Source: Desmodus rotundus (Eukaryota; Chordata; Mammalia; Chiroptera; Phyllostomidae). From it: a stretch of 64,000 bases of DNA. How positions within the stretch are numbered: position 1 is the stretch's first letter; each line of letters begins with the position of its first letter. The stretch lies in contig NC_071390.1 of NCBI RefSeq assembly GCF_022682495.2, positions 169,967,220 to 170,031,219 of the forward strand. The letters run 5' to 3'. The position numbers and the translations under genes are program-made. The notes beneath the pieces are model-generated. The model searched no databases. It saw only the letters and a program-made list of their open reading frames with translations, and was not told where the DNA came from. This document shows positions 3,722 to 58,440 of this stretch, one piece after another.

Positions 3722-5036
3722 AAAAAGGAACCAGACCAGACTATCAGAAAAGGGGAAAACAGAGAAAGCAGTAGGAGAGTAGGGTACAGAACAAATCAGG
3801 AGACAATCCAATTTAATTTTAGTGCCTGGTTCAGGTTTGACTTTGAAGGGGCAGGTCTTAGCTTTGGGAACCAACGCCTCAGTGTCTTAAAGGTGCAATT
3901 GAGAACTGCTGAAAGTAATGGGCGAGGCATGGCTGAGAAAAAAAGTGGGCTCTTTTCAAGAAGCGACAAGAGAGATAGGGAGAAATAAGACATTGCTGAG
4001 GATGGAGCCGGGGGATTTTGCTAAAATTCATTTGCAGAAGGTAATTATTCACTGGAGGTAGGAGTGACCACATTCAATGACAACACTGATTATGTTGGAA
4101 GAGAAAGCTACAGAGCTTGTTATCCTTTGAGGACACCACATTTTTGTTGAAAACCATTCATGTGGAATGTGTCATGAGGTTTCAATTAAATTTGTCCAGG
4201 ATTAAATGTGAAATTATTCCTTGTTTTAATTTGAGAGAATTAATACAAAACCTTTCCTTAACTTTATACAATGGCAAAATGAATGTCATCACTCACTTTT
4301 TTTTAGCTTATTTTTGTGTGAAATTGGGTAGCGCAACTCTTTAATTCCTGGAATTTATATAATCAGAATTCTGTAGCTGTAAATGTTATTGTCTGTACTT
4401 CTTATAACTTTGATTCCACTGTGTTCCTTAGAGTCATTGCTTCAAAAGAATATTTCACAGCAGTATTCTTGTGATTCTCAGACTTTTTCCAATTCAGAAA
4501 TTCCTGTAATGTATCCATTCTAACCAATTTATGTACTCTCGTAATTAAGCATTTGAAAGGAATGATTCTCACTTCTTAGTTTTACATTAATTAGATGTTT
4601 CATGGTGCCTCTGCTGCAACTATGATTGGTTTCCAAGCAGTAGATGTGCTCATGAACACCATCGAACATTTAAGCTCTGAAATGATTTATAAAATGTTAC
4701 TAGTGGTCCTCATATATTCAGTGTACTGACCTAAACGGGCAGGTATGCTTTAGCTTATGTCATCTAAACATACTGCTTTTAATGACTTCTACAGTGAAGA
4801 AGGGAAACTTGCCGATATGTTGGCTGGGATGTTAAGATATTATTTGAGATGGCTTTGAAATCATCTCAGTGTTTATTAATATCTAGTGGACCTGAAAAAA
4901 TACAAAACTGAAATATTTTAGGTAGCATTTGTACCATTCTACCTATCAAATATTAGTTAATTTGCTAATATGTCCCTCTAATAGTCTGCTACTCTCTTCT
5001 GTTCATTTTATACCTGCATGGGCTGATGTATAAAAT
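3722..5036. other. Non-coding DNA, nothing recognised
   Basis: AT-rich sequence without recognised repeat, RNA gene or exon. Confidence 0.5.
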
Positions 5037-9713: not shown

Positions 9714-9875
9714 CTTCATAGCTTGTTGATAGCTTAAAAATAACTCCTTTTTAAGCAGTTTCAGATGAAGTGACTCTTCTCATTTCTTATGTCCCCTCAT
9801 AGCTTGTTGATAGCTTAAAAATAACTCCTTTTTAAGCAGTTTCTGATGGAGTGACTCTTCTCATTTCTTATGTCC
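9714..9875. repeat. 81-bp direct tandem duplication, two copies
   Basis: The block starting TCATAGCTTGTTGATAGC at 9716 recurs at 9797, a period of 81 bp. The copies end at 9794 and 9875 and differ at about two positions (TTCAGATGAAG versus TTCTGATGGAG). No mobile-element hallmarks. Confidence 0.92.
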
Positions 9876-9964: not shown

Positions 9965-11290
9965 AGCTTCTCTCTCTCACTATTTATTCCCCCATACCCT
10001 CTTCCACCTCCATCTACCCCCGTCCCCCCCTAATTACCACACTGTTGTCCATGTGCATGAGTTATTTCTCAATTTTTTTCTTTTTTTGCTCAATTCTTCC
10101 ACCTCCCCAGCCCCCCAATACTCTTCAGAGCTGTCAGCCTACTCTCTAGCTATGAGTCTGTCTCTAGTTTGCTTGTGGTTCAATTTGTTTATTAGATTTC
10201 ACATATGAATAAAATCACGTGGTACTTCTCTTTATCTGACTGGCTTATTTCACTTAGCATAATGTTCTCCACATCCATTCATGCTCTCTCAAAGAGTGAA
10301 ATCTCATGGTGTAAATGTGTCATAACTATTTTATTGACTCATCTACTGATGGATACTTGGGTTGCTTCCAAATCTTGGTGGTTGTAAATAACACTGCAAT
10401 GAATATAGGCATGCTTATGTTCCTTCTAATTAGTGTTTAGGGTGGAATCACTGGGTCATAAAAATGGACAGTTCCATTTTTAATTTTTTGAGGTAGCTCC
10501 ATACTGCTTTCCAGAGTGGCTGCACCAATCTGCATTCCCACCAACAGTGCCTAAGTGTTCTCCTTTCTCCACATCATCATCAACACTTGGTGTTTGTTGA
10601 TTTATTGATGATAGCCATTCTAACAGGTGTGAGGCAATATCTTAGTATGGTTTTAATTTGCATTTCTCTAATGATTAGTGACGTTGAACATCTTTACACA
10701 TGTCTACTAGCCATCTGTATGTCCTCTTTTGGGAAGTGTCTGTTTAGGTCCTTTGTCTATTTTTTAATTGGATTCTTTTGGTGTTGAGGTGTGTGTGTAT
10801 ATATATGAATATAAGTATATGTATGAATATATATTCTTTATAAATTTTGCATAATAACCTTTTATAGGATATATCAACAAATATGTTCTTCCATACCATG
10901 GGTTATGTTTTCATTTTGTTGATGGTTTCCTTTAGTGTGCAAAATTTTTAAATTTGAATGTTGTGCCATTTATTTATTTTGTTTGTTTGTTTGTTTCCCT
11001 TGCTCAAGGAAATATATTAGAAAACAATATTGCTACAAGCAATGTCTGAGATTTTACTGCCTGTATATATTTTCTTGTAGGATTTTTATGGTTTCAAGTT
11101 TAACATTTAAGTCTTTAATCTATTTTGAGTTTATTCTTGTGTGTGGTATAAGAAGGTGGTCTAGTTTCATTTTTTTTTTGCACAAATCTGTCCAATTTTC
11201 CCTACACTATTTATTGAATAGACTATCTTTAGCCCATTGTATGTTTTGTTCTCCTTTGTCAAATATTGAGCTTCTTTTGATGCGTAGGCT
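9965..11290 (-). mobile_element. Older 5'-truncated L1 (3' part of ORF2 and 3' UTR)
   Basis: Reading the + strand, this follows the antisense L1 order: C-rich 3' UTR, CTTATTTCACTTAGCATAAT, AATGAATATAGGCATGCTTA, AGGTGTGAGGCAATATCTTA, and on to TCTCCTTTGTCAAATATTGA. ORF2 is broken by many stops. A TA/TG microsatellite (about 10788-10840) has grown inside. It belongs to an older lineage than the intact copy. Confidence 0.85.
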
Positions 11291-12034: not shown

Positions 12035-12050
12035 GCTAGACTGATTTTAT
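12035..12050. repeat. Target-site duplication, 3' side of the full-length L1
   Basis: GCTAGACTGATTTTAT, identical over 16 bases to 18867-18882. It directly abuts the L1 tail. The inferred first-strand nick GATTTT/AT resembles the L1 endonuclease consensus TTTT/AA. Confidence 0.93.
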
Positions 12051-12085
12051 TTTTTATTTTATTTTTTTTTTTTAATTTATTTATT

Positions 12086-12328
12086 GTTATTTAATTACAG
12101 TTGTATGCCTTTTCCCCCATCCCTTCACCCCACCCCAGGTGAACCCACTTCCCTCCCCCCTCTCCACCCTCCCCCTTGGATTTGTTCATGTGTCCTTTAT
12201 AGTAGTTCCTGTAATCCCCTCTACCCACTGTCCCCGCCCCCGCCCCCCACCCCCGCCCTTGCTATTGTTACATTGTTCTTAACTTCAATGTCTCTGGTTA
12301 TATTTTGTTTGCTTTTTCCTTCTATTGC
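12086..12328 (-). other. LINE-1 3' UTR with G-rich tract
   Basis: Between the ORF2 stop and the poly(A) signal lies about 240 bp that is strikingly G-rich on the L1 sense strand. Runs of three to six G occur at 12230-12257, in a spacing that meets the G-quadruplex pattern. L1 3' UTRs of several mammals carry such a tract. The same tract marks truncated copies elsewhere in this window (5412-5640, 29755-29884, 54540-54650, 58255-58440). Confidence 0.8.
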
Positions 12329-15300
12329 TTATGTTCCAGTTAAAGGTGAGATCATATGGTATTTGTCCCTCACTTCCTGGCTTATTTCACTTAGCATAAT
12401 GCTCTCCAGTTTCATCCATGCTGTTGCAAAGGGTATAAGCTCCTTCTTTCTCTCTGCTGCGTAGAATTCCATTGTGTAAATATACCATAGTTTTTGGATC
12501 CACTCGTTTGCTGATGGGCACTTCGGTTGCTTCCAGTATTTGGCTATTGTAAATTGTGCTGCTATGAACATTGGGGTGCACAGATTCTTTTGGATTGGTG
12601 TTTCAGTGTTCTTAGGGTATAATCCCAGCAGTGGAATTACTGGGTCAAAGGGCAGTTCCATTTTTAGTTTTCTGAGGAAATTCCATATTGTTTTCCACAG
12701 TGGCCTCACCAGTCTGCATTCCCACCAACAGTGCACTAGGGTTCCCTTTTCTCCGCATCCTCTCCAACATTTGTTTGTGGATTTGTTTATGTTGGCCATT
12801 CTGACTGGTGTGAGATGATACCTCATTGTGGTTTTAATTTGCATCTCTCTTATGGCTAGTGATGCTGAGCATCTTTTCATATGTCTCTGGGCCTTCTGTA
12901 TGTCTTCCTTGGAGAAGTGTCTGTTCAAGTCCTTTGCCCATTTTTTAATTGGGTTGTTTGTCTTCCTGGAGTGTAGTCGTGTGAGTTCTTTATATATTTT
13001 GGAGATCAGGCCCTTGTCTGAGGTATCATTGGCAAATATGCTTTCCCATATTGTTGGTTCTCTTTGTAATTTGGTGCTGTTTTCTTTAGCCATGCAGAAG
13101 CTTTTTATTTTGATGAGGTCCCATTTGTTTATTCTTTCCTTTATGTCCCTTGCTTTAGGGGATGTGTCTGTGAGGATGTTGCTGCGTGGAATGTCTGAGA
13201 TTTTCCTGCCAATGTTTTCCTCAAGGACTTTTATGGTGTTACGGCTTATATTTAAGTCTTTTATCCATCTTGAGTTTATTTTCGTGTATGGCGTAAGTTG
13301 GTGATCGAGTTTCATTTTTTTGCACGTAGCTGTCCAGATCTCCCAACACCATCTGTTGAAGAGACTGTTTTTGCTCCATTTTATGCTCCTGCCTCCTTTG
13401 TCAAATATTAATTGATCGTATAGATTTGAGTTTATTTCTGGGCTCTCTATTCTGTTCCATTGGTCTATGAGCCTGTTTTTATGCCAGTACCAGGCTGTTT
13501 TGATTACCGTTGCCTTGTAATACAGTTTGATATCAGGTATTGTGATACCTCCTGCTTTGTCCTTCTTTCTCAAAATAGCTGCTGCTATTCGAGGTCGTTT
13601 ATGGTTCCATATGAATTTCTGCAATGTTTGTTCTATATCTGTGAAATATGTCATGGGTACTCTAATAGGGATTGCATTGAATCTATAAATTGCTTTGGGT
13701 AGTATGGCCATTTTGATGATGTTAATTCTTCCAATCCATGAACATGGTACATGCTTCCATTTGTTTGTATCTTCCTTAATTTCTTTCTTCAGTGTTGTGT
13801 AGTTTTCTGAGTACAGGTCTTTTACCTCCTTGGTTAGGTTTATTCCTAGGTACTTTATTTTTCTTGTTGCTATATCGAATGGGATTTTTTTCCTGATTTG
13901 TGTTTCTGCAGTTTCGTTGTTGGTGTACAGGAATGCCTTTGATTTCTGGGTATTGACTCTGTATCCAGCTATTTTGCCAAATTCATTTATTAGGTCGAGT
14001 AGTTTTTGAGTGGAGTCTATAGGGTTTTCCATGTACACTATCATGTCGTCTGCAAACAGTGACAGTTTCATTTCCTCCTTTCCAATTTGGATGCCTTTTA
14101 TTGCTTTTTCTTGTCTGATTGCTGTGGCTAGGACTTCCAATACTATGTTGAATAGGAGTGGTGAGAGAGGGCATCCTTGTCTTGTTCCTGATCTTAGTGG
14201 GAAAGCTCTAAGTTTTTGTCCATTGAATGTGATGCTGGCTGTAGGTCTCTCATATATGGCCTTAATTATGTTGAGGACTGCTCCCTTTATTCCCACTTGG
14301 CTGAGTGTTTTTATCAGAAATGGGTGCTGTATCTTATCGAATGCTTTTTCCGCATCTATTGATATGATCATGTGATTTTTGTCTTTGCTGTTGTTGATGT
14401 GATGTATTATGTTTATTGATTTGCGAATATTGTACCATCCTTGCATCCCTGGGATGAATCCCACTTGGTCATGGTGGATGATCTTTTTAATATATTGCTG
14501 GATGCGGTTTGCTAATATTTTGTTGAGAATTTTAGCGTCTATGTTCATCAGCGATATTGGCCTGAAGTTTTCTTTCTTCGTTGTGTCTTTATCTGGTTTT
14601 GGGATTAGGATGATGTTGGCTTCATAAATAGAGTTTGGGAGTCTTCCATCAGTTTGGATTTTTTCGAATAGTCTGTGAAGGATAGGGGTTAGTTCTTCCT
14701 TGAATGCTTTGTAGAAATCTCCTGTGAAACCATCTGGTCCAGGGCTTTTGTGTGATGGGAGTTTCTTGATGACTGCTTCAATTTCCTTTGCTGATATTGG
14801 TCTGTTCAGGTTTTCTGCTTCTTCTTCAGTCAGTTTTGGAAGATTATATTTTTCTAGAAATGTGTCCATTTCATCTAGGTTTTCAAATTTCTTAGCATAT
14901 AGGTCTTCATAGTAATTTCTTACGATCCTTTGTATTTCTGTGGTATCAGTTGTAATCTCTCCTCTTTCATTTCTAATTCTGTTTATTTGGATCCTCTCTC
15001 TTTTCTTCTTGATAAGCCTACTTAAAGGCTTGTCGATTTTGTTTATCTTTTCAAAGAACCAGCTTCTGGATTCATTGATCCTTACAATTGTGCTTTTAGT
15101 CTCTATGTCATTTAGTTCTGCTCTGATCTTGGTTATTTCCTTCCTTCTGCTTGCTCTGGGCTGTCTTTGTTGTTGTTCCTCCAGTTCTTGTAGGCGTAGG
15201 GTTAGGTTGTTTGTGTGAACTGTTTCTAACTTCTTAAGGTAGGCCTGTATTGCTATGAACTTCCCTCTCAGGACTGCCTTAGCTGTGTCCCATAGGTTTT

Positions 15301-16150
15301 GGGTTGTTGTGAGTTCGTTTTCATTTGTTTCCAGGAAGTTTTTGATTTCTTCCCTAATCTCGTTCTTGACCCATTCATTGTTTAATAGCATGCTATTCAG
15401 TCTCCATGATTTTGAGTGTTTTGGGTTTTTACCCTTGGGGTTGGTTTCTAGTTTCAGACCCTTGTGGTCAGAGAAGATGCTTGATATGATTTCAATTTTC
15501 TTGAATTTGTTGAGGGTTGCTTTGTGTCCTATCATGTGGTCTATCTTTGAAAAAGATCCATGGACACTTGAAAAGAATGTGTATTTTGCTTCTTTGGGAT
15601 GAAAAGCTCTGTATATATCAGTTAAGTCCATTTCCTCTAGGGTATTGTTAAGTGACACAATATCTTTGTTAATCTTTTGTTTGGAAGACCTGTCCATTTT
15701 TGATAGTGGGGTGTTAAAATCCCCTACTATAATTGTGTTGCTGTCAATATCTTTCTTGAAATCCTCCAAGATTTTCTTTATGTATTTGGGTGCTCCTATG
15801 TTGGGTGCATATATATTTATAATGTTTATGTCTTCTTGGTGGATTCTTCCTTTGAGTATTATGAAGTGACCTTCTGGGTCTCTCTTTATGGCCCTTCTTT
15901 GGAAGTCTATTTTGTCTGATATGAGTATTGCTACCCCTGCTTTTTTTTCCTGTCCGTTTGCTTGGAAAATTTGTTTCCAGCCCTTCACTTTCAGTCTGTG
16001 TAAGTCTTTTGTCCTGAGATGGGTTTCTTGTAGGCAGCATATGTGTGGGTCATGTTTTCTTATCCATTCAGCTGTTCTATGTCTTTTGATTGGAGCATTT
16101 AATCCATTTACATTTAAGGTTATTATCGATAGGTAGTTATTCATTGCCAT
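12329..16150 (-). CDS. LINE-1 ORF2p endonuclease/reverse transcriptase
   Basis: The 1273-residue protein is uninterrupted (human ORF2p is 1275). It nicks target DNA and reverse-transcribes L1 RNA at the nick. The N-terminal APE-type endonuclease (about 1-238) keeps the expected active-site residues: N13, E42 (in QETH), Y114, D144 and N146 (GDFN), T191, D204 and the SDH triad 227-229. The reverse transcriptase keeps IDAEKAFD near residue 600 and FADD at 699-702 (catalytic D701, D702). The C-terminus has the CX3CX7HX4C motif at 1128-1145. The protein ends SPLTGT followed by TAA. The ATG at 16148-16150 gives the alignment to other L1 ORF2 starts, shifted by one residue. No frameshift or missing catalytic residue was found. 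Confidence 0.96.
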
Positions 16151-16196
16151 TATTTCCTACCTGTGTTCCTCTGTCTTTCTCTTTTCCTTCCTTTCC

Positions 16197-17129
16197 TTAA
16201 AGCAGTCCCTTTAGCATCTCTTGCAGAGCTGGTTTGGTGGAGCTGTATTCTTTTAGACTTCTTTTGTCTGGGAAGCTCTTTATTTGGTCTTCTATCTTGA
16301 TTGAGAGCCTTGCTGGGTAAAGTAGTCTTGGTTGGAGGCCTCTGGTTCTCATTACTTGGAATATTTTTTGCCATTCTCTTCTGGCTTGGAGCGTTTCCAT
16401 TGAGAAGTCAGTTGCTAACCTTATTGGGGCTCCCTTGTATGTTACTTCCTTTTTCTCCCTTGCTGCCTTTAAGATCCTCTCTTTGTCTTGGAAATTTGCC
16501 ATTTTAATTATGATGTGTCTTGCAGTGGGTCTCTTTGGGTTCCTCTTGTTTGGGACTCTCTGTGATTCCTGGATTTGGGTGACTTTTTCTCTCCTCAGAT
16601 TAGGGAAATTTTCCATCATTACTTTTTCAAACAGGTTTTCTATCCCTTGCTCTTCTTCTTCTCCTTCTGGTATTCCTATTATACGGATATTGTTACGTTT
16701 CATGTTGTCCTGCATTTCCCTTATTGCCTCTTCATTCTTTCTGAGCCTCTTTTCCTTTTCTTGCTCCTTCTGGGTGTTTTTTTCTACTTTATCCTCCAGC
16801 TCGCTGATCCGTTCCTCTGCTTCATCAAGTCTGCTTTTAATTCCTTCTACTGTGTTCTTCAATTCAGAAATTGTATTCTTCATTTCCTCTTGGCTCTTGT
16901 TGATATTTTCTATTTCCTTTTTCATGTTGATATAGTTTGCAGTGAGTTCATTGTAGTTTCCTTGTAGTTTCTGGTAGTTCTCTTTGAGCTCAGAGAGCTC
17001 AGTGAGCTTCCTGATGACCATTGCTTTGAACTCAGTATCTGATAGTTGACTTGCCTCTTTTTCGGTTAGCATTCTTTCTGAGACTTCCTCCTTTCCTTTC
17101 ATTTGGGAATTGTTTCTTTGTCTTCCCAT
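16197..17129 (-). CDS. LINE-1 ORF1p RNA-binding chaperone
   Basis: The 310-residue protein coats L1 RNA as a trimer and is required in cis for retrotransposition. A basic, low-complexity start (1-45) is followed by a long heptad-repeat coiled coil (about 45-140, rich in E, K, L and I). An RRM-like domain follows (about 143-240, beginning NNIRIIGIPEG), then a C-terminal domain (about 240-310) with the conserved stretch around TLQARREWQ (246-254). Human ORF1p is 338 residues; the shorter length lies mainly in the N-terminal part and coiled coil. The frame is intact from ATG to stop, 46 bp upstream of ORF2. Confidence 0.93.
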   Translation of the reverse strand: MGRQRNNSQMKGKEEVSERMLTEKEASQLSDTEFKAMVIRKLTELSELKENYQKLQGNYNELTANYINMKKEIENINKSQEEMKNTISELKNTVEGIKSRLDEAEERISELEDKVEKNTQKEQEKEKRLRKNEEAIREMQDNMKRNNIRIIGIPEGEEEEQGIENLFEKVMMENFPNLRREKVTQIQESQRVPNKRNPKRPTARHIIIKMANFQDKERILKAAREKKEVTYKGAPIRLATDFSMETLQARREWQKIFQVMRTRGLQPRLLYPARLSIKIEDQIKSFPDKRSLKEYSSTKPALQEMLKGLL

Positions 17130-18866
17130 TGTTTGTGAGGCTCTTCTTGTTGGCCTCTGCTTCTTAAATTGCTTTGTTCTGAATCCCTGGGTTTATGATA
17201 TGAACTTCTATGGTAGAATGCCAATGGGATTCGGTGGTGCTGTCTCCTTACTCTCCTGTGCTCACTGGTCTTGAGCTGACGTTTATGTGTTTAACACGGT
17301 CTAACTCTAGTCTTTTCAGCACTCCAGGTTTTGTTGTCGCACCTGTGGGAAAAATAGAAAGGGGGGGAGAAAGAAAAGGAAAAAACAAACAAACAAACAA
17401 ACAAAAAAAAAAAACCAAAGATGGGAAGGAGGGAAAAAGGAAATAGGAAAGGAGGAAAGGGAGGAAGGAGGGAAGAAGGATTAAAGAAAGATCGGAGGCA
17501 AGATAAGAAGGAATTTTAACAAAAATTAAAACATAGAAATAGATAAAAGAAGGCAGGAAGAAGACATAAAAATGGTAAAGGATGGGAGGAAGAAGGAATG
17601 AAAGAAAAAAAAAGAGAGAGAGAGGAAGAAGGAGTTCAGGTGGAAAGGAAAAGGGAAAAAAAAAAAAAAAAAAGGGGAAAAAAAAAAAAATCTTCTGTTG
17701 GCTTTAAACCGTTCAGGTTATTTCTGCTGTTGTCCTGTCTGTGCAACGGGAGGGGGTGGTTGGAAGGATTGGTTTTACTTTTCTTCCTTCCTGGGTCACA
17801 CTCTTCACTGTTTTGTAGGTGTGGTCCCTGGCAGGCAATCAGGCCGTTGATCAGCCAATCCAGCAGCTTTGTTCTTGGGACTCTCGAGTGGCCGCTCCAG
17901 CCGCTTTGGCTCCGGACGCGTGCGCGCGCAGCAGGGGAATCCAGCCGCTTCGGGTTTGTGACGTTATTTGGGCTCTGAGCGCGCAGCCGGCCGACCAATC
18001 GAGCCGCCCAGGCTAGGGAGGCTGGCGCGCTGCAAGCTGCTGGTTCAGCCGCCTTGGTGTTACGACTCTCGCCAGCCCCTTTGTGCTTGGGAAGTGCGCA
18101 TCCAGCCGGCCCTACGCTTGGTGAGCGCGCAGCCCGCCGCCGAGCCAGAGGCTCTACGCTTGGGAGCCCGATCCAGCCGCCCGGGGCTTGAGACTCTCGG
18201 GTGGGCGGGGCCGCCCTGGGACCGAATCACGCGGTCCTCGGTTCCGAGGTTTTGGGTCTGTGGGTGGAGCAGCTAGTCTCTGCTCCAAAAGATCTCGGAG
18301 GTTTCAGGTGTGGGCGCCCCTCCGGGGTTTCACGTATGGGCCCCGTTCGCTAATCTGCGCGCGCGCTACCGCGCGCAACGGACCTCAGGTGAGCGCCGGT
18401 GCTGCTTATCCCGCGTTCCCCGTTCGCAGTCCAGGGGCGGAGGGGGGAGGGGCGCCAGGGGCCTCGGCCACCACCGAGAGTTCTCTAACTAGCCCCTGAG
18501 TGTCTCTATTTTCTTTTTCTTTTTGAGAAATTCCTCCTTTTCAAGCCCCCCTGGTCTAATCAAGCACCTGGCTGCTCACAGCACAGCCTGGCTCTCTCCC
18601 AGGACTCCTGCAGCAGCCCCTGCGCCAGGGCTGGCGCCTCTGCAGCCCTTGTACCGCGCGGTCCCGGGTCCCGGGGACCTTATTGTCCTTGAGCACTCTT
18701 CTTACCGTCAGATCTTTCAATGTCCTCTATCTTTGGTCTCTAATCTTCGTATATGCTGGAGTACTGTTGGCTGTTCGCTCTGCTCCTCAGATCAGCTAGG
18801 TATTTCCCTGGCGCTGAGTGGAAGTGGTTTCCGCTCCCACCTATGTTGCCGCCATCTTCCAAATCC
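17130..18866 (-). promoter_or_regulatory. LINE-1 5' UTR with internal promoter
   Basis: This 1.7-kb leader has two parts. The distal part (about 17700-18866) is GC- and CpG-rich and begins, in L1 sense, GGATTTGGAAGATGGCGGC; the AAGATGGCGGC core (about 18848-18858) matches a YY1 site at nearly the same place as in primate L1. It carries several CAGCCGC-type motifs on the + strand (near 17897, 17941, 18045, 18101, 18171). The proximal part (about 17340-17700) is a pyrimidine-rich tract in L1 sense with homopolymer runs and a short (TTTG)n run. Promoter function is inferred from L1 biology. Confidence 0.8.
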
Positions 18867-18882
18867 GCTAGACTGATTTTAT
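18867..18882. repeat. Target-site duplication, 5' side of the full-length L1
   Basis: Perfect second copy of the 16-bp sequence at 12035-12050. It fixes the 5' end of the L1 at 18866 and shows the element is not 5'-truncated. Confidence 0.93.
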
Positions 18883-19199: not shown

Positions 19200-19410
19200 T
19201 GTCCTGGCTAGGTGGCTCTGATGGTTGGAGCATCACCAAATACCCCAAAAGGTGGTAGGCTCAATCCCCCCATCAGGGCACGTATGGGTGGCAACTGACC
19301 AATGTTTCTCTCTCTTCGATGTTTCTCTTTCTCTCTCTCCCCCTCTCCCTTCTTCTCTCTCTAAAATCAATAAACATATCCATGGGTGAGGATTAAAAAA
19401 AATAAAAATA
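19200..19410 (+). mobile_element. VES SINE, copy 2 (different subfamily)
   Basis: Head CCTGGCTAGGTGGCTCTGAT, degenerate box B GGCTCAATCCC, CT-rich region, then AAAATCAATAAACATATCCA and an A-rich tail. It is flanked by the 11-bp duplication AAGGGAATTCC (19189-19199 and 19411-19421). The body lacks the CCAGGTCCCCAGT segment seen in copies 1 and 3, so it is another VES subfamily. Confidence 0.9.
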
Positions 19411-20507: not shown

Positions 20508-21150
20508 TCACTATGCAGGCTCTGTAGAAAGCAGTATGGAGATACCTCAAAAAGTAAAAATGGAACTGCCTTCTGACCCAGGGATTCCACTTCTGGGAAT
20601 TTATCTAAAGAAACCTGAAACACTAATTTGAGAGAATATATGCACCCCTATGTTCATTGCAATGTTATTGACAATAGCCAAGATTAGGAAGCAGCCTAAG
20701 TGTCTGTCAGCAGATGAGTGAATAATGCAGCTATGGTACCTTTATACAACAGAATATCACTTGGCCATAAAAAAGAAGAAAATTTTATCCTTTGTGACAA
20801 CATGATTGGACCTAGAGACCATTATGCTAAGTGAAATAAACCAGACAGGGAAAGACAAGTGCCATATGATTTTACTCATATATGGAATCTAATGAACAAA
20901 CTAAATTAACAAGCAAAGTAGAGACAGACTCATAGATAGAAGCAGGCTGACAGCTCTGGAGGGGAGATGGGGATGTAGAGATCAAGCAAAAAAGAAAAAC
21001 AAGAGAAAACTCATGGACACAGATAACAAAGTAGTAATTGCAGGGAGGAGGTAGGTGGGTGGAGGTGGAAGAAGATATGGGGAGGATAAATGGTAATAGA
21101 AAAAATATAATAAAATAAAACATCAATCAATCATAATTCCAAAATAAAAG
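20508..21150 (+). mobile_element. Older 5'-truncated L1 in sense orientation
   Basis: Sense L1 order: CAGTATGGAGATACCTCAAA, TGACCCAGGGATTCCACTTC, ATATCACTTGGCCATAAAAA, CATTATGCTAAGTGAAATAA, then an A-rich end (about 21095-21150). ORF2 is broken by stops. Not the same subfamily as the intact L1. Confidence 0.85.
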
Positions 21151-29369: not shown

Positions 29370-30860
29370 TTTACTTTGTTTTAATAAAAGTTGCATATAT
29401 TTTAAGGTGTACAATATGATATTTTGATGTACATTTACACAGTGAAATAATTACTGTCATCATCTCTTGCATAGTTTCCTTTTTCACGGTCACGAGAGCC
29501 CAGAAATCCACTATCTTAGCACATTTCAGGAATACACTGCCACATTACTAACTACAGCCAGCATGCTGTATGTTACATACCTAGAATGGATTCATCCTAC
29601 ACACCCACTGCTTTGCACACTTGGAGCACCATCTTCCCATTTGTCCCACCCCCTGCCCTTGGTAACTGCCATTCTACCCTCTGCATCTATGAATTCAGCT
29701 ATTTTAGATGTGACATATATGTGAGATCATTTCCTTCTTTGTCTGGTTCATTTCGTTTCTTTTTCCACATTTTTTATTGTTGTTCAAGTACAGTTGTCTC
29801 CATTTTCCCCCCACAACTCCGCCCCACCCTAACCATCCCCACCTCCCCACCTTGGTCCTACCCCTTTTTGGTTTTGTCCATGTGTGGTTCATTTCTCTCA
29901 GCATTGTGCCCTCCAGATTCATCCACAATGTCACAAGTGACAGGGTTACTTTCTTAAAGGCTGAATAACATCTCAGTGTTTGTGTGTGTGTGCGCATCAC
30001 AATTTCTTTATCCATTCCTCCATCAGTAGATTGTTTCTATATCTTTGTCACCATGAATAATGATACAATAAACAAGAAAGTGCAGGTGTCTCTTCGAAGT
30101 ACTGACTTCATGTCCTTTGGATATATACCCAGAAGAGGGTTTGCTGAATTCTGTGGTAATTCTATTTATAATTTTATGAGGAAACTTCATACTGTTTTCC
30201 ACAGTGGTGGTACTAATTTAAATTCTCACTGAAAATTCATAAAAGTTCCTTTTCATCCACATTCTCGCCAACATTTACCTTTTATCTTCTTTTCTTTGTA
30301 TGAAACTTCTGGAGGTGACATCGGTCAATACACTTATACAGGTTTCAAGTGTGCATTTCTATGGTGCATGGTCTTCACACTGCACTGTGTGCCCACCACC
30401 CAGAGTGACATCATGCCTGTCACCCAGCCGTTCTCGTGGGTGTGAGATGATATCTCATGGTGGGTTTTTTCTGTGCATATACATTCTTTGACTAATTGCT
30501 TCACCTGCTTTGATTTGCACTTCCCTGATAATTAATGATGTTGAGCACCTTTTCATGTACCTGTTGGCCATTTGTATGTCTTCTTGGAAAAAGTCTGTTT
30601 ATGACCTTCGACCATTTTTTAAATCAAGTTACTTAATTTTTTACTTTTGAGTTGTATGACACACTTATATATTTTGGATTTGGCCACTTTTCAGGCATAT
30701 GGTTGGAAAATATTTTCTCCCATTCTACAGGCTGCATTTCTATTTTGTTGGTGGTTTCCTTTGCTATGCAGAAGCTTTTTAGTTTGATGATGTCCAACAT
30801 GTTCATTTTTGCTTTTGTTGCCAGGAAATCAGCTTTATATATAAATGCAAAGGAACTGAT
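29370..30860 (-). mobile_element. Old L1MA/L1MB-type element, interrupted
   Basis: The + strand follows antisense L1: TAAGGTGTACAATATGATAT, TTGGTAACTGCCATTCTACC, GGATATATACCCAGAAGAGG, CTTTTCATGTACCTGTTGGC, TGCTATGCAGAAGCTTTTTA. ORF2 is broken. It is split by a younger L1 3'-end insertion at 29755-29884 and by a second unlike segment at about 30318-30425 that resembles another L1 3' UTR (CCACCCAGAGTGACATCATG). Confidence 0.85.
29755..29884 (-). mobile_element. Short bat L1 3'-end insertion nested in the older L1
   Basis: TATTGTTGTTCAAGTACAGT, a C-rich stretch, then GGTTTTGTCCATGTG, the same 3' UTR as the full-length L1. It is bounded by the direct repeat TGGTTCATTTC (29744-29754 and 29885-29895), and the surrounding old L1 reads continuously across it. 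About 130 bp, severely 5'-truncated. Confidence 0.85.
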
Positions 30861-54075: not shown

Positions 54076-54089
54076 AAAAAGATAGTTGA

Positions 54090-54807
54090 CTTAGCATAAT
54101 GCTCTCCAGTTCCATCCTTGCTGTCGCAAAGGCTAGGAGCTCCTTCTTTCTTTCTGCTGCATAGAATCCCATTGTGTAAATGTACCATAGTTTTTTGATC
54201 CATTCATTTACTGATGGGCACCTAGGTTGCTTCCAGCATTTGGCTATTGTAAATTGTGCTGCTATGAAGGTTGGGGTGCATAGGTTCTTTTGGATTGGTG
54301 TTTCAGGGTTCTTAGGATATAATCCTGGCATTATGCTAAGTGAAATAAGCCAGGCGATGAAAGACAAATACCATATGATCTCACCTTTAACGGGAACCTA
54401 ATCAACAAAACAAACAAGCAAGAAAAATATAACCGAAGACACTGAAATTGAGAAAAGGCCAACAGTGACCAGAGGTGAAAGAGAGGGAATTTCAGGGGAA
54501 AAGGGTGAAGGGTTTGTAGGAACAATTATAAAGGACACATGGACAATAACAGAGGGGTGGGTTGGGGGGTGGAAATGGGAGGGAGGTGGGGAGGGAGGTG
54601 GGGAGGGCTGGGGATTAGGCTGGGGTTGGGGGGAAAGGCAGAGAACTGTACTGGAATAACAATAAAATTAGAGGGGGAAAAAAATCCATCTCTTACAAAG
54701 CTTAATTAAAACTAACTACAGATGATGTGTGGTAGAACTATGTACCTGAAACCTGCATGATTTTGTTAACCAATGTCACCCCAATAAATTCAATTAAAAA
54801 AAGAAAA
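54090..54807 (+). mobile_element. Twin-primed, 5'-inverted L1 with 3' extension
   Basis: 54090-54328 is the ORF2 3' part in antisense; 54329-54685 continues in sense from almost the same L1 position (CATTATGCTAAG occurs on both sides) into the G-rich 3' UTR, AATAAA and an A-run. After that comes about 120 bp ending ACCCCAATAAATTCAATT and a second A-rich tail. The whole unit is flanked by AAAAAGATAGTTGA (54076-54089 and 54808-54821). Inversion with a small overlap is the mark of twin priming. The extra tail inside the duplication suggests 3' transduction. Confidence 0.88.
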
Positions 54808-57760: not shown

Positions 57761-58254
57761 TTTTGGTTTCTGCGTTTTCATCCTGGGCTGTCCATGAATA
57801 TTTCAGGGTGAGATAATAACATGCTGTGCACGTCACCTGTGTAACTGAGCAGACCATGTTCATTAGTGGGTTTCACTATGGACTGGCCACTCAGTTAAAA
57901 ACCTGGCCATTTAATCAGAAGGTCCTGAAATATTCCCATCTACGGGTCTTTTCTCCAGAGCTAGAGCTGATTTCCTATCATTTATCAGTTGGAAATTGGA
58001 TTAGCCTGTATGAATCAGAAATCCAACTTTAGTTGCTTACTTGTGTAAGATTTTCTCCTTCTCTCTCAATAAAAAAGCTAAAGTTCTGCTCAAATTGTAT
58101 CTTTACCTACCAGCACACTTAGCATATGGCTTTTATCACCCACATTTGTCACTCATAGTTCCAACAAAGTTGCTCCATCTCCAACCTCATGTCCACGATC
58201 TAGACAGGAAGGAAAGGGTTTTTTTGACTTATTTATTTAAATTATTTTTTTAAC
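57761..58254. other. Intronic DNA, nothing recognised
   Basis: No feature identified. Confidence 0.4.
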
Positions 58255-58440
58255 TTTTTAAAATTGTTGTCCAAGTACAGTTGTCTCCATTTTTTCCCCA
58301 CCACTACCCCCCACCATCCCCACTTACCACCCTTGATCCTACCTGCTTTTGGTTTTGTCCATGTGTCCTTTATAGTTGTTCTTGAAAACCCTTCCTCCTT
58401 TTCCCCCCATTATCCCCCCACCTCTTATGTGGACCCCAGC
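58255..58440 (-). mobile_element. Truncated bat L1 3'-UTR copy
   Basis: AAATTGTTGTCCAAGTACAG, C-rich stretch, TTTTGGTTTTGTCCATGTGT CCTTTATAG: the same 3' UTR as the full-length L1, antisense. Confidence 0.8.

What the first reader, a model, noticed from the sequence alone, without database searches (positions are those of the whole stretch)
12051..18866. Full-length LINE-1 with both ORFs intact, possibly still mobile
Both ORFs run uninterrupted at near family length, endonuclease and RT catalytic residues are all in place, the 5' UTR is complete, and there is a poly(A) signal and tail. Most genomic L1 copies are truncated or broken. LINE-1 is known to be extinct in some bat lineages (pteropodids), so an intact copy helps place this lineage and marks a candidate source element.
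Basis: partly seen in the sequence, partly recalled or inferred. Interest (0 to 1): 0.78.

Follow-up and report, generated by a model that had tools for sequence, protein, structure and literature searches.

The report
Young intact LINE-1 with spliceable leader
This is a very young, complete jumping gene (LINE-1) in a mammal genome that looks like a bat's; such copies are common there and so it is ordinary, but its untranslated leader contains an intron-like stretch that is missing, cut at the same splice sites, from many sister copies, far more often than reported for the human LINE-1.

Summary
Window 12051-18866 (minus strand) is a full-length LINE-1 with a perfect 16-bp target-site duplication, ORF1 of 310 aa, ORF2 of 1273 aa and the expected endonuclease, RT and cysteine motifs. 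It is young: 5 private substitutions in 6784 bp against 20 nearest siblings. It is not rare: 1183 sites carry the family's 5' end at up to 3 mismatches, and 16 of 20 fetched siblings have both ORFs full length. The family moved recently. Whether this copy can move is unclear: none of the 20 siblings shares its ORF2 F508I, at a residue that is Phe in 120 of 120 listed ORF2 homologues. The Ile codon occurs at 2 genome sites, this one and a decayed copy, against 1358 with Phe.

Unexpected: the 5' UTR holds a 1363-nt GT-AG intron (17343-18705). Its spliced junction occurs at 349 sites (68 exact, control 0) against 2487 unspliced donors, and in at least 24 of 95 young 5' ends, in at least two sublineages and probably a third. 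These look like SpIREs, about 2% in human L1, here 12-25%.

The parts
12051..18866 (-). full-length LINE-1 element
   Evidence: TSD, ORFs, homology to human L1 proteins
12035..12050 (.). target-site duplication, copy next to the L1 3' end (GCTAGACTGATTTTAT)
   Evidence: exact 16-bp match to 18867-18882
18867..18882 (.). target-site duplication, copy next to the L1 5' end
17130..18866 (-). 5' UTR, 1737 bp; CpG-rich in its first kilobase
18851..18858 (-). AAGATGGC, YY1-like motif at element position 9 (name recalled)
18706..18866 (-). leader exon 1 (element 1-161), retained in spliced copies
17343..18705 (-). 5' UTR intron (element 162-1524): donor ACG|GTAAGA, acceptor polypyrimidine-TTTTTCCCACAG|GTGCGAC; 78 of the 88 CpGs of the 5' UTR
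17130..17342 (-). rest of the leader after the acceptor (element 1525-1737)
16197..17129 (-). ORF1, 310 aa: RRM-like and C-terminal domains after a coiled-coil-like region
16151..16196 (-). inter-ORF spacer, 46 nt
12329..16150 (-). ORF2, 1273 aa: endonuclease, reverse transcriptase, cysteine motif
13835..14605 (-). reverse transcriptase domain of ORF2 (Pfam RVT_1, residues 516-772), FADD at 699-702
14627..14629 (-). ORF2 codon 508, ATT (Ile), private to this copy among 21 aligned; Phe in the 20 siblings and in 120 of 120 listed ORF2 homologues
12716..12769 (-). CX3CX7HX4C motif of ORF2 (residues 1128-1145)
12051..12328 (-). 3' UTR with G-rich tract, AATAAA signals (12076-12085) and A-rich tail

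Best explanation
The feature is a recently inserted, full-length LINE-1 of a young, abundant family that was still moving very recently (shown from sequence). It was copied into this site by target-primed reverse transcription: ORF2p nicks a T-rich site, primes on the poly(A) tail and leaves a 16-bp duplication (inferred from the TSD and the established L1 mechanism). The copy keeps both proteins open, but it carries a private F508I change in ORF2 that may weaken it (inferred). Its 5' UTR contains a 1363-nt intron; host splicing often removes it from the family's RNA, and spliced RNAs have been retrotransposed more than once, giving several hundred sites with the spliced junction (junction sites shown; splicing inferred). 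The five such copies that I read have a 368-nt leader. Because the intron holds most of the CpG-rich leader, spliced copies probably lose much of their promoter (inferred from human SpIREs).
For: TSD, ORFs and domains. 39 other hits at 98-100% to the first 900 bp of the leader, 40 scored of 3284 candidates. 1183 5' ends at up to 3 mismatches, reversed control 0. 20 of 20 fetched siblings full length, 16 of 20 with both ORFs full length. Mean pairwise difference 0.39%, 5 private substitutions in this copy. ORF2 variant codons 40 nonsynonymous to 34 synonymous against 2.85 to 1 expected without selection; ORF1 13 to 6 against 2.89 to 1, weak. Splicing: exact 2854-base spacing in 5 of the 19 C1 copies that had both markers, of 22 entered; boundaries on GT-AG with a long pyrimidine tract; 5 of 5 fetched copies with the junction at the same base; 349 junction sites at up to 3 mismatches, control 0; 2487 unspliced donors at the same stringency; exact matches 68 spliced against 338 unspliced; at least two sublineages, probably a third.
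Against: No RNA data. Siblings L036-L055 were chosen for similarity, so 16 of 20 intact overstates the family as a whole. Only 5 of the 349 junction sites were read beyond the 44-base match. The junction has 3 nt of microhomology (GGT), so a recurrent template slip during reverse transcription is not formally excluded. No branch-point motif by a simple pattern in the last 80 nt of the intron. The acceptor string I tested differs in 2 of 20 siblings (L053, L055), though the AG itself is there and the exon side is changed. No empty allele in the assembly, so polymorphism is unproven.
Confidence: 0.87

Rival explanations
1. The junction copies are not splice products but one internally deleted L1 subfamily that arose once and amplified itself.
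For: Spliced L058 and L061 share one base (T to G in the ORF1 region) not seen in the 33 other rows of that alignment; the junction occurs at 349 sites; 5 of 5 checked spliced copies keep ORF1 open.
Against: Spliced copies occur in the GGAAACC lineage of the window copy (at least 4 of 21 exact 5' ends) and among one-mismatch 5' ends on C1-C3 (at least 20 of 74, of which 72 are GGAATCC), there with either GTGCGAC or GTGAGAC after the junction. L059 differs from the other four spliced copies at three sites that also separate unspliced copies: their states are shared with unspliced L027, L028, L029 and L031-L035, and unspliced GTGAGAC copies exist (L029, L055). The boundaries fall on a good donor and acceptor.
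Confidence: 0.12
2. The element is an immobile copy: open frames, but inactivated by F508I at insertion or soon after.
For: Residue 508 is Phe in 120 of 120 listed ORF2 homologues, in 117 of 120 listed nearer fragments with 2 Cys, 1 Val and no Ile, and in the 20 siblings. 85 of 1273 positions are invariant in that alignment and only 6.5% of random missense change falls on such positions. No descendant with the Ile codon was found in the assembly by exact 36-mer.
Against: Phe to Ile is hydrophobic to hydrophobic; no assay; a very young copy need not have descendants yet. A published alanine scan that would bear on it was not held.
Confidence: 0.4
3. An old copy kept similar by gene conversion, not a recent insertion.
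For: None found in the calls; it was not tested directly.
Against: Perfect TSD, only 5 private substitutions and a nearly star-like tree.
Confidence: 0.03

Closest known systems
Human LINE-1 (L1Hs, L1.3)
   Same: Layout 5' UTR, ORF1, short spacer, ORF2, 3' UTR and tail; EN, RT and cysteine motif; ORF2 aligns nearly end to end; internal 5' UTR splicing known (PMC5860796).
   Different: ORF1 310 aa (338 in human, recalled); leader 1737 bp (about 900 in human, recalled); private F508I; different splice sites (161/1525 here, 97/622 in human).
Human SpIRE97/622 (Larson et al. 2018, PMC5860796: abstract and sections 7 and 14 read, other passages by search)
   Same: Intra-5'-UTR splice junction retrotransposed by L1; found in several subfamilies.
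   Different: Human: 116 of 6609 full-length L1PA1-L1PA6 (1.8%), all three SpIRE classes 131 of 6609. Here 349 junction sites against 2487 unspliced donors (12.3%), and at least 24 of 95 among the young 5' ends checked; intron 1363 nt against 524 nt. The denominators are of different kinds: annotated full-length elements there, short-pattern sites here.
Reconstructed megabat L1 (PMC4072516, passages seen)
   Same: Bat L1.
   Different: Extinct about 24 million years ago in Pteropodidae with a long spacer between the ORFs; here a recently active family with a 46-nt spacer.

Membership tests
LINE-1 (L1), full length | ORF2 with AP-like endonuclease and RT | tested here: met
   Pfam and colinear match to human ORF2p
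LINE-1 (L1), full length | ORF1 with RRM and CTD | tested here: met
   PF02994, PF17490 and 2ykp
LINE-1 (L1), full length | complete 5' UTR shared with other copies | tested here: met
   39 other hits at 98-100% to the first 900 bp, one of them only to base 819; 5' ends of 20 siblings line up within 8 bases
LINE-1 (L1), full length | poly(A) signal and tail, target-site duplication | tested here: met
Retrotransposition-competent L1 | both ORFs uninterrupted | tested here: met
Retrotransposition-competent L1 | no substitution at an invariant functional residue | tested here: inconclusive
   F508I at a 120-of-120 Phe position; effect unknown
Retrotransposition-competent L1 | mobility or RNA signal | not testable with these tools
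   no expression or cell data
Retrotransposition-competent L1 | insertion polymorphic among individuals | tested here: inconclusive
   no empty site in one assembly; no population data
SpIRE (spliced integrated retrotransposed element), in sibling copies | deletion with GT-AG boundaries inside the 5' UTR | tested here: met
   (5 of 5 copies read)
SpIRE (spliced integrated retrotransposed element), in sibling copies | the same junction in independent insertions | tested here: met
   different 5' flanks in 5 of 5; 349 sites; at least two sublineages
SpIRE (spliced integrated retrotransposed element), in sibling copies | spliced RNA detected | not testable with these tools
   no RNA data
SpIRE (spliced integrated retrotransposed element), in sibling copies | the window copy itself is spliced | tested here: not met
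   the window copy keeps the intron, 17343-18705

The most novel reading that the evidence does not exclude
This L1 family carries a constitutive-grade intron in its leader. A large share of its germline RNA is spliced, and spliced copies (368-nt leader, both ORFs open) are not dead ends but themselves spread, so that the family cycles between a long CpG-rich form and a short leader that escapes CpG-directed silencing.
Probability: 0.15. Interest if true: 0.75.

Novelty: new member of a known kind. Interest (0 to 1): 0.42.

Why it matters
The intact copy is one of many and by itself ordinary. The useful part is that the genome gives a large natural data set on L1 splicing: several hundred sites with one fixed donor-acceptor junction. 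That makes it testable whether splicing is a host brake on L1 or is tolerated or exploited by it. The listings of my two searches on this showed SpIRE studies of human L1 and none of bat L1. The copy also illustrates that 'both ORFs intact' does not equal 'competent'.

Tried and rejected
Antisense ORF in the 5' UTR (17598-17978, 126 aa), as a possible ORF0-like gene: start, frame and length change between siblings (82-139 aa) with indels in the A-rich tract, so rejected. Whole-window Rfam search: no match at gathering score. Empty allele in the assembly: none at up to 3 mismatches. Descendants of the window copy by its Ile-508 codon: the only other exact 36-mer, in L057, lies in a copy 85.8% identical over 1785 bp and decayed. 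IMG/VR exact search for the junction and for the donor: 0 and 0. Shared base in L058 and L061 as a test of self-propagating spliced copies: not decisive, because nearer ORF1 proteins also show that residue. Adney et al. 2019 alanine scan: not held. F509, the human counterpart of residue 508, was not found in three ORF2p papers searched by term. In one search the extra G at column 155 is an artefact of my slicing; L053 and L055 were dropped from the alignment because my acceptor string did not match, and entered again. In one search the printed junction position is wrong for L059 and L061, because my search string did not match their GTGTGAC; the BLAST rows of the same call place it as in the other three. 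No TSD was printed for 4 of 20 siblings and for 3 of 20; of the 16 nick sites printed, 11 end in TT on the 5' side and 5 do not. In one search I entered 22 of the 25 C1 5' ends listed; the other three lie beyond the end of the ORF2 listing. One search used the 21 exact and the 74 one-mismatch sites on C1-C3 as listed, and the junction listing was cut at 100 of 349, so its counts are lower bounds.

Full report
What is there. Window 12051-18866, minus strand, is a full-length LINE-1. The element has a 1737-bp 5' UTR, ORF1 of 310 aa (16197-17129), a 46-nt spacer, ORF2 of 1273 aa (12329-16150) and a 278-bp 3' part with AATAAA signals and an A-rich tail. ORF1 and ORF2 match the L1 domains in Pfam and human ORF1p and ORF2p in the PDB. 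The expected EN, RT and cysteine motifs are present (which residues are catalytic is recalled, apart from D702 and D703 of human ORF2p, named in a passage of PMC10830416 seen).

Is it unusual in its genome? No. The window lies in a 2.12-Gb assembly. A search with the first 900 bp of the leader scored 40 of 3284 candidates, the window copy and 39 others at 98-100% identity. The 35-base 5' end occurs at 1183 sites with up to 3 mismatches, 21 of them exact, and the reversed control gives 0. All 20 are full length, and 16 of 20 have both ORFs at full length; L038, L039, L044 and L046 are broken. The 20 were picked by similarity, so 16 of 20 is not a family-wide rate.

How old is it? Over 6784 bp the window copy differs from the 20 siblings by 0.18-0.69%; the mean of all pairs of the 21 is 0.39%. 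It has 5 private substitutions. With a recalled bat neutral rate near 2.4e-9 per site per year this is about 0.3 million years, Poisson range about 0.1-0.7; it is an upper-type estimate, since unsampled copies may share some changes. The tree is nearly star-like, with a four-copy group of the window copy, L036, L037 and L038 (support 0.98). Variant codons in ORF2 number 40 nonsynonymous and 34 synonymous, against 2.85 to 1 expected without selection; in ORF1 13 and 6 against 2.89 to 1, weak. Broken copies were included. So the family was moving recently and ORF2 at least was under constraint.

Can this copy move? Of its 5 private changes, 3 are silent, one is ORF1 D106E and one is ORF2 F508I. 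Residue 508 is Phe in 120 of the 120 ORF2 homologues listed (315 passed the threshold; those with a species name are mammals), and in 117 of the 120 nearer fragments listed, the rest being 2 Cys and 1 Val. It is one of 85 invariant positions among 1273; random missense change falls on such a position 6.5% of the time. Genome-wide the exact 36-mer with Phe occurs 1358 times and with Ile twice: here and in L057, a decayed copy 85.8% identical over 1785 bp. So I found no descendant of this copy that carries the Ile codon.

An intron in the leader. Comparing 5'-end sites with ORF2 sites on contig C1, I entered 22 of the 25 listed 5' ends; 19 had an ORF2 match downstream, and in 5 of these the spacing was exactly 2854 bases while in 13 it was 4168-4232 and in one 3787. 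The missing 1363 bases correspond to element 162-1524, which begins GTAAGA after ACG and ends in a long pyrimidine tract and TTTTTCCCACAG before GTGCGAC. The donor string is present in 20 of 20 siblings and the acceptor string in 18 of 20; in the other two the exon side of the string is changed. Five such copies, fetched at 2 kb each, have the junction at the same base, 97.5-100% identity in exon 1 and 99.6-99.8% downstream, and different 5' flanks. All five keep ORF1 open and the first 184 codons of ORF2, with a 368-nt leader; 78 of the 88 leader CpGs lie in the part that is removed.

How often? The 44-base junction occurs at 349 sites with up to 3 mismatches, 68 of them exact, reversed control 0. 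The unspliced donor of the same length occurs at 2487 sites with up to 3 mismatches and at 338 exactly, control 0. That is 12.3% of 2836, or 16.7% of 406 exact sites; the exact figure leaves out the GTGAGAC form and so is low. Cross-matching the listings gives at least 4 of 21 exact 5' ends and at least 20 of 74 one-mismatch 5' ends on C1-C3, together at least 24 of 95. The human figure is 116 of 6609 (1.8%) for SpIRE97/622 and 131 of 6609 for all three classes (PMC5860796, section 7 read); its denominator is annotated full-length elements, so the comparison is rough.

One founder or many? L059 is of the window copy's GGAAACC lineage; L058, L060, L061 and L062 are of the GGAATCC lineage. The three linked states that set these four apart from L059 are shared with unspliced L027, L028, L029 and L031-L035. 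So the junction arose in at least two sublineages. A third is probable: the GTGAGAC form exists both unspliced (L029, L055) and spliced, but I read no spliced GTGAGAC copy beyond the pattern. This fits repeated splicing better than one deleted founder. L058 and L061 share one further base, which leaves room for some spread of spliced copies. The junction has 3 nt of microhomology, and a simple pattern found no branch point in the last 80 nt; both are noted against.

Mechanism. Shown from sequence: structure, youth, copy number, junction and counts. Inferred: target-primed insertion from the TSD and from sibling target sites, of which 11 of the 16 printed are T-rich at the nick; splicing by the host; loss of promoter in spliced copies, by analogy with human SpIREs, where the construct with the spliced leader as sole promoter reached about 7% of the reference L1 (PMC5860796, section 14 read).

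Context. L1 extinction in bats is described for Pteropodidae and did not affect other families (PMC4072516, passages). Reports differ widely between bats: 859 potentially active L1s in the Jamaican fruit bat and 1 in Seba's short-tailed bat (PMC12424770, passages); intact LINE ORFs in Myotis and Rhinolophus but not Molossus (PMC10239488, passages). The splicing papers listed concern human L1 (search listings; PMC5860798 passages). The host is probably a non-pteropodid bat, since the nearest named proteins are from bats, most similar to Phyllostomus discolor; the species was not determined.

Noticed in passing
window 54083-54666: Inverted-plus-direct L1 3' end (54083-54325 minus, 54328-54666 plus), the pattern of twin priming; 90% and 72% identical to the intact element.
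   Followed up: no
window 10214-11267, 20522-20870, 30107-30815, 58232-58394: Older L1 fragments, 68-74% identical to the intact element.
   Followed up: no
window 18861-18866 and loci L036, L037, L039, L047, L051: Six extra bases GGATTT before the usual start GGAAGATGGCGGC, shared by these copies (L051 has one more A); three others begin with GGACTC or GGATAA, most of the rest without such bases, which suggests variable start sites or short 5' additions.
   Followed up: partly
G000:C1:82724813: One 5' end has a spacing of 3787 to ORF2 instead of about 4217 or 2854, a possible other deletion or splice form.
   Followed up: no
window 9716-9875: Two 81-bp tandem copies, 97% matching.
   Followed up: no
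window 19206-19400: A tRNA-related SINE resembling VES SINEs of bats (recognised from memory, not searched).
   Followed up: no
P0048, P0006 and other ENA proteins: ORF1 pieces up to 98% identical to this family come from short ENA contigs without a name, perhaps bat DNA in environmental or faecal samples (origin not checked).
   Followed up: no
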